64,000 nucleotides of DNA from Promicromonospora sukumoe 327MFSha3.1 (lineage in GTDB: Bacteria; Actinomycetota; Actinomycetes; Actinomycetales; Cellulomonadaceae). Positions 39,629 through 42,139 of this stretch are shown here, piece by piece. The DNA is taken from the NCBI RefSeq assembly GCF_000385135.1, contig NZ_ARQM01000010.1:1240001-1304000 (forward strand). The letters run 5' to 3'. The notes beneath the pieces are model-generated. The model was not told where the DNA came from. It did no database searches and saw nothing but the letters and a program-made list of their open reading frames with translations. The position numbers and the translations under genes were made by a program. The stretch's first letter is position 1. Every line of letters starts with the position of its first letter.

Positions 39629-41323
39629 GTGACCCGCGCCTCCTTCCCCTGGTCCCGAATCGGCTTCGCCGTCCTCGTCGTGGTCTCGCTCGGCCTCGGC
39701 TGGTGGGGCCTGATGCTCGACACGACGCACGTGCCCGGCCGGACCTGGTACGACGTCGTCTACCACGACCTGCAGCTCTTCGTGCTGGGCGCCGACCCGG
39801 CCAGCGCGGGGGGCGAGCTGTCCTGGCAGCTCCAGGTCGCGCGGTTCCTCGCGCCCGGCACCGCCGTCTACGCGCTGTTCGAGGCGGCGCGCGCCCTGTT
39901 CACCGGGGAGATCCGCCGGTTCAGGGAACGGCGCGCCCGCGGGCACGCGATCGTCGTGGGGCAGACCGACGCCGCCGACACCGTCACCGCCGCCCTCGAG
40001 GCGGCCGGACACCGCGTGCTGCGGACCGCCGACGCCGCGGGCCTGGCCGGCGTCGGGCTCACCGGCGCGACCGTGCTGTACGCGTGCGGCGACGACACCA
40101 CCGAGGCGACCGCGAACGTGCTCACCGTCGCCGAGGCGGAGGCCGCCGTCCGCCGTGCGGGCAGCGGCCCGGAGCGGCTGTACGCCCACGTCAGCGACCC
40201 CGACCTGGGCGTCGCGCTGCAGGCGCGGCACCTGAGCTGCGCCGAGCCGGGTGTGGACTTCTTCACGCTCGACGTGATCGCCGCCCAGGCCCTCGCGGTG
40301 CGTGAGGTGCGTCGCATCCTGGACGCCCCGGGCGGCCCCGCGCCGGTGACGCACCTCGTGGTGGTCGGCTCGGGCGAGTTCGCCAAGGCGCTCGTGGTGG
40401 GCCTGGCCCGGGAGTGGGAGCTGGCCGGCGAGGGCCTTCGGCTGGTGGTCGACCTGACGGCGGACGACGCCGACCACGTGGCCGGCGAGCTGCGGACGCG
40501 CTGGTCGCCCGTCGCGCAGCGGATCGAGCTGCGGGCCGTGCCCGTGCTCGGCACGGGCAGCACGGCCGTCCCCGATTCGGTGTACGTGTGCCACGCGTCA
40601 GACGGCACCTCGCTGCGGGTGGCGCTCACGGCGACGTCGCTGTGGCACGGCGGGCCGGGCTCGCTCGTGCTCCTGCTGGACGGCCTGGCGGGCCTGACGG
40701 GCGCGTTCGGCACCGAGGCGTCGCGCGTGCTCGACAACCTGGACGGCCGCCTGCGCACCGTGACCACGCGCGACCTGCTCGCCGACGTCGAGCGCGTGGA
40801 GGCCCGCGCGCACGACGACATGTACGAGCGCATCGCGCGCTCCGTGCACCACGTCTACCTGCGCAACCAGCTCGAGCGCGGCGTCGCCTGGGGCGAGGTC
40901 CCCGCGATGGTGCGCTGGGAGGACCTGCCCGACGCCCTGCGGGCCTCCAACCGCGGCTGGGTCGTGGGGCTGCCCGCGCGGCTGGCCCGGATGGGCGCCA
41001 CGATCGCGCCGCGCGACGGGGCACCCGAGGTCGTGTTCGAGGGTGCCGAGCTGGACCGGCTCGCCGAGGCCGAGCACGAGCTGTGGGAGTCCGTGCGCGT
41101 GACCCAGGGCTGGCGCAGCGGCCCCGTGCGGGACGACGACGCCCGCGTGCACCCGATGATCGGCGTGCCGTGGTCCGAGCTGCCCGAGTCGAACCGCGAG
41201 AAGGACCGCGACGTGGTGCGCCTGCTGCCCGAGATCCTGGCGGAGTTCGGGCTGGAGGTGGTGCGGTACCAGGAGGCATCGGCAGGCAGGTCGTCGGCGA
41301 ATCAACCCACTCCGGTCGGCTGA
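39629..41323 (+). CDS. membrane protein with TrkA-N-like NAD-binding region and C-terminal RyR domain
   Basis: A 564-residue protein. A membrane helix (residues 10-29) and a second hydrophobic stretch (about 72-92) flank YHDLQLFVLGADP; no K+-selectivity filter (TVGYG) is seen. Residues 105-250 and 235-370 look like two Rossmann-type regulatory units (HAIVVGQTDAADTV, HLVVVGSGEFAKALV). Residues 478-540 match a RyR domain: ELWESVRVTQGW, GPVRDDDARVHP, PWSELPESNREKDRD. RyR domains in bacteria have been linked through genome context to nucleotide ligands; here the role is unknown. The C-terminal 15 residues are poorly RyR-like, and an antisense endonuclease frame runs into this gene. Confidence 0.82.
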   Translation: MTRASFPWSRIGFAVLVVVSLGLGWWGLMLDTTHVPGRTWYDVVYHDLQLFVLGADPASAGGELSWQLQVARFLAPGTAVYALFEAARALFTGEIRRFRERRARGHAIVVGQTDAADTVTAALEAAGHRVLRTADAAGLAGVGLTGATVLYACGDDTTEATANVLTVAEAEAAVRRAGSGPERLYAHVSDPDLGVALQARHLSCAEPGVDFFTLDVIAAQALAVREVRRILDAPGGPAPVTHLVVVGSGEFAKALVVGLAREWELAGEGLRLVVDLTADDADHVAGELRTRWSPVAQRIELRAVPVLGTGSTAVPDSVYVCHASDGTSLRVALTATSLWHGGPGSLVLLLDGLAGLTGAFGTEASRVLDNLDGRLRTVTTRDLLADVERVEARAHDDMYERIARSVHHVYLRNQLERGVAWGEVPAMVRWEDLPDALRASNRGWVVGLPARLARMGATIAPRDGAPEVVFEGAELDRLAEAEHELWESVRVTQGWRSGPVRDDDARVHPMIGVPWSELPESNREKDRDVVRLLPEILAEFGLEVVRYQEASAGRSSANQPTPVG

Positions 41324-41329
41324 GCCCCA

Positions 41330-42139
41330 CCGCTTCGGCCCGATGAGCGCGTCGAGTCGGGCGACCCCGGAGCGCTTTGACACGCTGATCGTCACGTCGT
41401 TCGACTGCCGCCACGGCACTCCCACGACGTCCAGGGCCTTGCTGCACAGGTCCCTGATGTCCGATGACCGGTTCGAGAACTGCCAGCGCGGGTACTCGTA
41501 GCGGCGTACCTCCCCACTGCTCAGCATGCGGCGGGTCCAGTTCCTGGTGCGACAGCCGTCCGAGTGAAAAAGCCCTCGCAAGAACCTCGCCGCATGCCTG
41601 GCGACGATCTGCTGCTGCCAAGCATCGAGGACGATGTGCCTCGTGTGCTCGCGTCCGGGGTCGTGCTGCGGGAAGAGGCAGGGCCAGTGCTTCCAGGCCG
41701 CTGTCGTGACGACGCACCCTGTCTTGTGCCGCGCGTGCGGCCTGGCGTGCGGCTTCACCGCACGGATAAGTTCCTGCAAGCGACCGTTGTTCTCGACGTA
41801 CCGCTTGTCGTTGTAGATCTGGAGCGAGAAAACGCCGCGCCGGCCCTCGACGAGGTGACCGTCCCCCAGGTACCAGCCGGGCAGCTCGGCGTATGCCGGG
41901 TCGTCGAGCGTGCCGCCATGGCAGCGGGGGCATGTCGCCGAGGTGTGGGCCTGGCCCCGGCTCCGGCCACGAACCTGGTACTCGAGCCGCCAGCGCCGGA
42001 TCGTCTTCACCGAGACACCGTGTCGCGCCGCGTTCTCAGCGTCGGGCAGGCCTCTGTCCGACAGCGCGAGGGCGCTGACGACGAGGTCGTCGGACCGGAT
42101 GTGGCTCATGTGTCGGATGGTGTCATCGACCACTGACAT
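41330..42139 (-). CDS. HTH plus LAGLIDADG-type homing endonuclease-like protein; stop codon missing at the expected end
   Basis: 270 residues are family-like. Residues 20-52 are a helix-turn-helix (ARHGVSVKTIRRW), then a CPRC pair (70-73), and two LAGLIDADG-like motifs: PGWYLGDGH (D93) and LRGLFHSDG (D194). HWPCLFPQHDPGREH and YPRWQFSNRSSDIRDL are conserved in actinobacterial relatives, which end soon after the VGPKR-like motif. Here no stop follows IGPKR (41330); the frame stays open to 40598, antisense inside the TrkA/RyR gene. The natural end has probably been lost. It starts 22 bp past tRNA-Leu on the same strand. The ATGs at 42139 and 42109 both lack a binding site. Base composition is visibly lower in GC than its neighbours. 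Confidence 0.7.

What the first reader, a model, noticed from the sequence alone, without database searches (positions are those of the whole stretch)
39629..41323. Membrane TrkA-N-like protein ending in a ryanodine-receptor-type RyR domain
Two dinucleotide-fold units follow a short membrane region with no ion-selectivity filter, and the C-terminus matches RyR (GWRSGPVRDDDARVHP and PWSELPESNREKDRD). Bacterial RyR domains have been proposed to bind nucleotide-type ligands. The architecture suggests a membrane sensor that reads a nucleotide signal with the RyR part and a dinucleotide with the TrkA part. No partner gene is obvious nearby.
Basis: partly seen in the sequence, partly recalled or inferred. 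Interest (0 to 1): 0.7.

Follow-up and report, generated by a model that had tools for sequence, protein, structure and literature searches.

The report
Membrane ryanodine-receptor-type nucleotide sensor
This soil-bacterium gene encodes a membrane protein that looks like a potassium-channel relative wired to the nucleotide-sensing part of animal ryanodine receptors, and several of its relatives sit beside TIR immune-signal genes, which suggests that bacteria read TIR-made signals with it.

Summary
The RyR domain is real (PF02026, E 1.2e-13). It is the second half of a tandem repeat like animal Repeat12, behind TM1–pore helix–TM2 and two Rossmann units (AlphaFold pLDDT 80.5; top Foldseek hit human RyR3 Repeat12 with dantrolene and ADP). 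The K+ filter is absent; the first Rossmann site is degenerate in this lineage. Counterparts of the four ligand residues of phage RyDEP, which cleaves 2'/3'cADPR (PMC13232231), are present. The window copy is a core Promicromonospora gene without a TIR beside it. But its paralog in the same genome is divergently paired with a TIR-TM gene, and in an even phylum sample 12 of 20 RyR genomes carry a TIR within 8 kb (0.21 expected). Best reading: a membrane receptor/effector for an ADP-ribose-type signal, TIR-made in paired relatives; the window copy is an orphan or housekeeping branch. Against: no TIR beside the 10 named window orthologs or the 30 loci of one other family. Ligand and pore are inferred. 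The key TIR survey (Yirmiya 2025) was not readable, so priority is uncertain.

The parts
39629..41323 (+). Membrane-RCK-RyR protein, 564 aa (GTG start)
39650..39724 (+). TM1 (residues 8-32)
   Evidence: AlphaFold; hydropathy peak 11-29
39746..39784 (+). pore-helix-like helix (residues 40-52)
   Evidence: AlphaFold
39782..39799 (+). place of the K+ filter: VLGADP instead of TVGYGD (residues 52-57)
   Evidence: canonical filter seen in the non-RyR homolog L160
39824..39934 (+). TM2 with conserved ARFLAP (residues 66-102); weakly hydrophobic
   Evidence: AlphaFold; near-invariant L68, A71, R72, P76 in A3; below the hydropathy threshold
39938..40324 (+). first Rossmann/RCK-like unit (104-232), dinucleotide motif degenerate
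40346..40786 (+). second Rossmann/RCK-like unit (240-386), keeps GSGEFA
40820..41023 (+). degenerate first RyR repeat (398-465)
   Evidence: about 186 columns aligned to Repeat12
41042..41266 (+). second, canonical RyR repeat (472-546)
   Evidence: Pfam, PDB, Foldseek
41075..41086 (+). H483 and W486 (RyDEP H75, W78 equivalents)
   Evidence: spacing from PMC13232231; H 37/37, W 36/37 in A3
41150..41152 (+). H508 (RyDEP H100 equivalent)
   Evidence: H in 29 of 37
41204..41206 (+). D526 (RyDEP D117 equivalent, one residue further on)
   Evidence: D in 29 of 37

Best explanation
The protein is a membrane receptor/effector for an adenine-nucleotide signal of the ADP-ribose family. A tandem RyR module like Repeat12 of animal ryanodine receptors (398-546) binds the ligand with H483/W486/H508/D526. 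The conformational change passes through two RCK-like Rossmann units, probably in a multimer, to a two-helix, pore-helix membrane module that looks derived from a K+ channel but lacks the K+ filter, and alters the membrane (ion leak or depolarisation). In the paralog and many relatives the ligand would be made from NAD+ by the neighbouring TIR protein: a Thoeris-like signal pair. The window copy is the single-gene, core-genome branch. It either answers the same kind of signal made elsewhere in the cell (for instance by the TIR beside its paralog) or has been taken over for housekeeping. Shown: architecture (sequence and predicted fold), conserved ligand residues, TIR neighbourhood of relatives. 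Inferred: ligand identity, coupling, pore function, biological trigger.
For: RyR match and predicted fold with human RyR3 Repeat12 plus dantrolene and ADP as best Foldseek hit. The family profile hits ryanodine receptors (E to 1.6e-40) and the TrkA-domain channel 4gx0 (2.7e-20). The N-terminal profile matches MthK over model positions 27 or 28 to 212 in two entries. PMC13232231 (parts 1-2 of 6 read): phage RyR proteins bind or cleave 2'/3'cADPR; counterparts of H75/W78/H100/D117 are all present here. Paralog divergently paired with a TIR gene in 9 of 9 full paralog loci (L038, eight more). TIR directly beside TrkA-RyR in L088 (gap 19 bp), L109 (7 bp), L116 (24 bp) and L084 (721 bp). 12 of 20 RyR genomes have a Pfam TIR within 8 kb, expected 0.21, P about 3e-21; 7 of 20 adjacent. 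The Glu that I take as catalytic is present in 25 of 25 aligned TIR neighbours, chosen from about 33 hits. A RyR protein in L087 also holds RelA_SpoT, with TPR-S and LSDAT_prok below cut-off, and a TPR-S gene (over cut-off) lies beside the TrkA-RyR of L115.
Against: No TIR in the window, within 6 kb of the 10 named window orthologs, or in the fetched flanks (up to 9 kb a side) of 30 of 30 loci of family f111 (six-frame scan), though the three f111 genomes searched by Pfam hold 11-28 TIRs. Four of the 20 RyR genomes have no TIR at all and four more have one that is not near, two of these with RyR on short contigs. Human RyR3 binds adenine ligands with the same residues, so they do not single out cADPR. 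No ligand, channel or phage data exist. Homology of the pore module to K+ channels is suggestive only: the membrane part of GsuK scored -0.8 bits. TM2 of the window protein is weakly hydrophobic. The TIR beside the own paralog scores 26.1 bits against a cut-off of 28 as a protein, 29.5 in the genome search.
Confidence: 0.45

Rival explanations
1. Housekeeping energy or NAD sensor: the RyR module binds ATP, ADP or AMP as human Repeat12 does, and the membrane module tunes ion flux or an associated transporter. TIR coupling is a feature of other branches only.
For: Stable core locus gltD-pyk-RyR-response regulator in 9 of 10 named genus loci, purifying selection, no TIR beside 10 of 10 named window orthologs or 30 of 30 loci of family f111. 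Several of the best Foldseek hits are ADP, AMP-PCP or ATP complexes of RyR3 Repeat12.
Against: Its sister paralog in the same genus is paired with a TIR in 9 of 9 full loci, and the TIR link recurs in 8 families of the even sample.
Confidence: 0.3
2. Signal terminator: the RyR module hydrolyses or soaks up cADPR isomers as phage RyDEP does and protects the cell from its own TIR.
For: Both catalytic-dyad residues of RyDEP (H75, D117) have counterparts H483 and D526.
Against: None of the eight RyDEP homologs that the paper tested degraded the signal. A membrane-RCK chassis is not needed for a sponge or hydrolase. D526 is replaced in 8 of 37 relatives.
Confidence: 0.12
3. Envelope-signal pathway rather than phage defence: the TIR partners are single-pass receptors whose outer domain senses the outside, and RyR-RCK proteins are the inner receivers. 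(A variant of the best explanation with another trigger; its odds overlap with it.)
For: Five of five TIR partners read beside TrkA-RyR (L038 standing for the genus, L088, L109, L084, L116) have one predicted TM behind the TIR. Parts behind it match PKD/PD40 (L084), WD40 (L116), Septum_form just below cut-off (L088), and PknH_C beside another RyR protein (L090). By eye the pairs of L038, L088 and L090 lie in housekeeping surroundings.
Against: Topology was predicted by hydropathy only. Of 14 TIR proteins tested, 4 (L091, L083, L104, L108) have no predicted TM and L092 only a doubtful one. WD40/nSTAND TIRs are also typical of immunity (recalled).
Confidence: 0.25
4. TIR proximity is only defence-island hitchhiking or chance.
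For: TIR genes are common in some genomes (11-28 in three f111 genomes). No control family was run.
Against: Chance expectation 0.21 against 12 observed. Gaps of 7-143 bp on the same strand in L088, L090, L091, L102 and L109, and overlapping genes in L092. The TIR-rich f111 genomes do not show it.
Confidence: 0.05

Closest known systems
RyDEP, phage RyR-domain glycosidase/sponge (PMC13232231)
   Same: PF02026 domain; H, W, H, D ligand residues at the same spacing (+1 before D in the window lineage).
   Different: RyDEP is a small, phage-encoded homodimer that ends TIR signals; here a cellular membrane protein with tandem repeats.
Thoeris (TIR ThsB + effector ThsA)
   Same: Relatives pair a TIR gene with a gene for a likely nucleotide-sensing protein; a membrane effector is a known kind (recalled for macro-TM ThsA).
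   Different: Sensor is RyR, not SLOG or macro; the membrane part is an RCK/2TM module; no phage test; the window copy has no TIR beside it.
GsuK/MthK-type RCK K+ channels (4gx0 named GsuK from recall)
   Same: 2TM with pore helix, then Rossmann/RCK units.
   Different: No TVGYGD filter; RyR pair at the C-terminus; first nucleotide site lost in the window lineage.
Animal ryanodine receptor Repeat12
   Same: Tandem RyR repeats that are predicted to fold alike; the animal domain binds adenine nucleotides (titles of 9l9b, 9ls7, 6uhh).
   Different: A small bacterial protein without the rest of the ryanodine receptor or its Ca2+ pore.

Membership tests
RyR domain PF02026 | profile score above the curated cut-off | tested here: met
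   51.5 bits against 27.4
RyR domain PF02026 | ligand residues H, W, H, D of RyDEP/RyR3 | tested here: met
   H483, W486, H508, D526
Repeat12-like tandem RyR | two repeats in one chain with the R12 fold | tested here: met
   AlphaFold; Foldseek 9l9b 186 columns, TM 0.55 of target; first repeat weak by sequence; predicted, not solved
TrkA_N / RCK (PF02254) | profile match of the window protein | tested here: not met
   not listed at E<=10; relatives L088, L105, L116 match over cut-off, L090 below it
K+ channel | TVGYGD selectivity filter | tested here: not met
   VLGADP at that place; no such motif in the 35 of 37 A3 rows that cover the region
Thoeris-like TIR + effector pair | TIR gene next to the effector gene | tested here: not met
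   not met for the window copy; met for its paralog (9 of 9) and for L088, L109, L116, L084
Thoeris-like TIR + effector pair | anti-phage activity, cADPR-type signal | not testable with these tools
   needs bench work; PADLOC has no match for the window protein
RyDEP | hydrolysis of 2'/3'cADPR | not testable with these tools
   residues present, activity unknown

The most novel reading that the evidence does not exclude
Bacteria possess a cADPR-gated channel pathway: a membrane TIR receptor makes a cyclic ADP-ribose isomer, which opens a K+-channel-derived, filterless pore through a ryanodine-receptor Repeat12 sensor. That would be a prokaryotic counterpart, perhaps the source, of cADPR-ryanodine receptor signalling, kept as a core orphan in Promicromonospora.
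Probability: 0.22. Interest if true: 0.88.

Novelty: new variant of a known kind. Interest (0 to 1): 0.6.

Why it matters
RyR domains in cellular bacteria have no assigned partner in anything I could read. A TIR next door in many relatives, together with the 2026 finding that phage RyR proteins bind TIR signals, makes 'RyR = receptor for TIR-made ADP-ribose signals' directly testable in a two-gene system. It would also bear on the old question of whether animal ryanodine receptors sense cADPR through Repeat12.

Tried and rejected
PADLOC gave no match and NCBIfam only an irrelevant sub-threshold one. The first AlphaFold run with 21 close rows was poor (pLDDT 57.9) and was replaced. A search of PLSDB plasmids with the tandem RyR of L088 found nothing at E<=0.001. 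The 50 Foldseek rows shown (75 matches at E<=0.001) are all ryanodine receptors or RyR chimeras; the RCK claim rests on profile searches, not on Foldseek. I first held that L093 had no TIR; Pfam found one next to it and my six-frame scan does too. At first I looked for the TIR catalytic Glu one helix too early; by the WxxxE motif (recalled, no call) it is conserved. Search for prior art on TIR plus RyR; of the listings I saw, only PMC13232231 joins RyR with Thoeris in a relevant way. 'TrkA' and 'bacterial RyR' are absent from its main text. Yirmiya 2025 (doi 10.64898/2025.12.03.692087) is not held, nor are two Burroughs/Aravind papers on nucleotide-based conflict systems that I looked up under recalled DOIs, which may be wrong. 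So I cannot say that the TIR-RyR link is unpublished.

The TIR profile was seeded from TIRs found near RyR genes; the statistics use Pfam PF13676. The 29 genomes were chosen by me, so their 23 of 29 is biased and not used as the test. The 20 genomes used are all PF02026 genomes of the 396; they are not independent (5 of the 12 positives are one genus). The 'within 8 kb' and 'adjacent' flags were set by hand from the coordinates. The TIR alignment left out about 8 hits: near-copies of the genus, L099 and L111.

Full report
WHAT IS THERE. The window is actinobacterial. The ORF at 39629-41323 lies between genes that I recognise by eye as gltB, gltD and pyk upstream and a response regulator and polA downstream. 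It is intact and under purifying selection (dN/dS 0.19 over 11 orthologs; lowest in RyR repeat 1, 0.10). gltD-pyk-RyR-response regulator is conserved in 9 of 10 named genus loci; the tenth, P. kroppenstedtii, has the gene in two pieces about 4 kb apart.

ANATOMY. Pfam gives RyR at residues 476-544, E 1.2e-13, and no TrkA_N. With an alignment of 37 sequences (A3) AlphaFold gives pLDDT 80.5, pTM 0.75: helices 8-32, 40-52 and 66-102 (order TM, pore helix, TM), two Rossmann units, then helices and strands of two RyR repeats. Foldseek places human RyR3 Repeat12 with dantrolene and ADP first (E 1.3e-7, 186 columns of a 205-residue target), which suggests that both repeats align. The profile of A3 also finds the TrkA-domain channel 4gx0 and TrkA (the name GsuK for 4gx0 is recalled); the N-terminal profile finds MthK, in two entries over positions 27 or 28 to 212, while the membrane part of 4gx5 scores only -0.8 bits. 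A non-RyR homolog has the normal filter TVGYGD (L160); the RyR family has sequences such as VLEFGN or VLGADP there. In relatives such as L083 and L088 the first Rossmann has the canonical GLGxxG and GDA; in the window lineage it reads GQTDAAD with a deletion.

LIGAND RESIDUES. I read parts 1-2 of 6 of the RyDEP preprint and passages of the rest (PMC13232231). It reports H75, D117, W78 and H100 around ADPR. Counted by eye on the alignment, the spacing 3, 25, 42 is met exactly by the paralog and with one extra residue before D by the window protein. In A3: H483 37 of 37, W486 36, H508 29, D526 29 of 37. The paper says that these residues also serve adenine ligands in human RyR3, so they indicate an adenine nucleotide, not cADPR as such.

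THE PARTNER. A second copy (47-49% identical) is full-length in 9 of the 13 genus genomes and partial in one more; the other three show none. In all 9 full loci a gene with an N-terminal TIR starts divergently, 66-227 bp away by predicted starts, and the partial locus has the same arrangement (L038, the rest). The own-genome TIR protein has one predicted TM. In relatives the TIR is next to TrkA-RyR in L088 and L109 (same strand, gaps 19 and 7 bp; L109 is cut by its contig end), and L116 and L084 (convergent; L084 cut too), and next to other RyR proteins in L090, L091, L092, L102 and L114; in G058 a TIR lies within 0.5 kb. Unbiased test: 20 of 396 phylum genomes have PF02026. All 20 were searched for Pfam TIR_2: 16 have at least one, and in 12, from 8 families, one lies within 8 kb of a RyR gene; expected 0.21, P 3e-21; adjacent in 7, expected 0.05, P 1e-14. 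Of 7 genomes with exactly one TIR, 5 have it by the RyR gene. Not near: G127, G170, G175, G213 (no TIR), G133 (23 kb), G358, and G198 and G225, where RyR genes lie on short contigs or at contig ends. The chance model assumes random placement and independent genomes, so the P values are rough, but the excess is large.

RESULTS AGAINST. A six-frame scan with my TIR profile found the TIR in 4 of 4 control loci, one of which (L093) had not been used to build the profile, and none in the window, in 10 of 10 named window-ortholog loci (6 kb a side), in G025's ortholog locus (L046), in 30 of 30 f111 loci, or in 13 further loci (some of these are short contigs or end close to the RyR gene). In the tree the window orthologs group with the TIR-paired paralogs (100/100; midpoint root), so the TIR link was lost in one or gained in the other; the tree cannot say which. 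The TIR-adjacent label needs 3 changes, no fewer than shuffled labels (mean 2.8): it is scattered, not one clade. Long branches make deeper joins unsure.

OTHER COMPANY OF RyR. L087 carries RelA_SpoT (over cut-off), TPR-S and LSDAT_prok (both below cut-off) and RyR in one protein beside a TrkA-RyR gene. A TPR-S gene lies beside the TrkA-RyR of L115. This is the company of nucleotide-signal systems. The five TIR partners of TrkA-RyR genes that I read have one predicted TM; matches behind it include PKD/PD40 (L084) and WD40 (L116), and PknH_C beside another RyR protein (L090). Of 14 TIR proteins tested, 4 have no predicted TM. The trigger may therefore be envelope or surface events rather than phage.

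READING. I hold the architecture as near certain, the adenine-nucleotide ligand as likely, TIR-made ligand for the TIR-paired relatives as likely, the same for the window copy as about even, and pore function as possible. PMC9503650, a survey of NAD/ADPr systems in viruses, does not mention ryanodine or RyR (term search of the main text); term searches of PMC13174449 and PMC13142454 found neither word (passages only seen).

NOVELTY. No paper in the listings of the searches named under Tried and rejected describes a TIR-RyR pair, as far as titles, abstract starts and the passages I read show, but the most relevant survey could not be read. I file it as a new variant of a known kind: a Thoeris-like signal pair in its relatives, with an unusual orphan member in the window.

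Noticed in passing
window 41330-42109 (-): Helix-turn-helix plus LAGLIDADG-like ORF (all Pfam matches below cut-off) between the RyR gene and the response regulator, beside tRNA-Leu; this interval is about 1.0 kb here against 0.2-0.76 kb in 10 relatives.
   Followed up: partly
L087 9739-12222 (+): 827-aa protein with RelA_SpoT, sub-threshold TPR-S and LSDAT_prok, and RyR, divergent from a TrkA-RyR gene.
   Followed up: partly
L115 7370-8722 (-): TPR-S gene directly downstream of a TrkA-RyR gene, same strand.
   Followed up: no
L092 9926-12332 (-): Small RyR gene overlapping a 708-aa protein with TIR and a sub-threshold PNP_UDP match; a SIR2-like gene (by eye) lies nearby.
   Followed up: no
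L084, L088, L090, L116 TIR genes: These TIRs beside RyR genes have one predicted TM; behind it lie PKD/PD40, sub-threshold Septum_form, PknH_C or WD40 matches.
   Followed up: partly
L048 (same contig as L035, P. kroppenstedtii): Ortholog in two pieces about 4 kb apart with a polA-like piece (by eye) between; rearrangement or assembly fault.
   Followed up: no
L102 7884-11102, L103 9094-12321, L101 7344-10097: RyR proteins of about 0.9-1.1 kaa, with a weak AAA match in L101 and L102 (L103 not scanned); in L102 a TIR-WD40 gene is adjacent, in L103 a TIR gene two genes away.
   Followed up: partly
phage collection: 200 phage records carry a match (E<=0.01, all under 60% identity) to the window RyR domain, among them Salmonella, Pseudomonas F116-like, Arthrobacter and Gordonia phages.
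   Followed up: no
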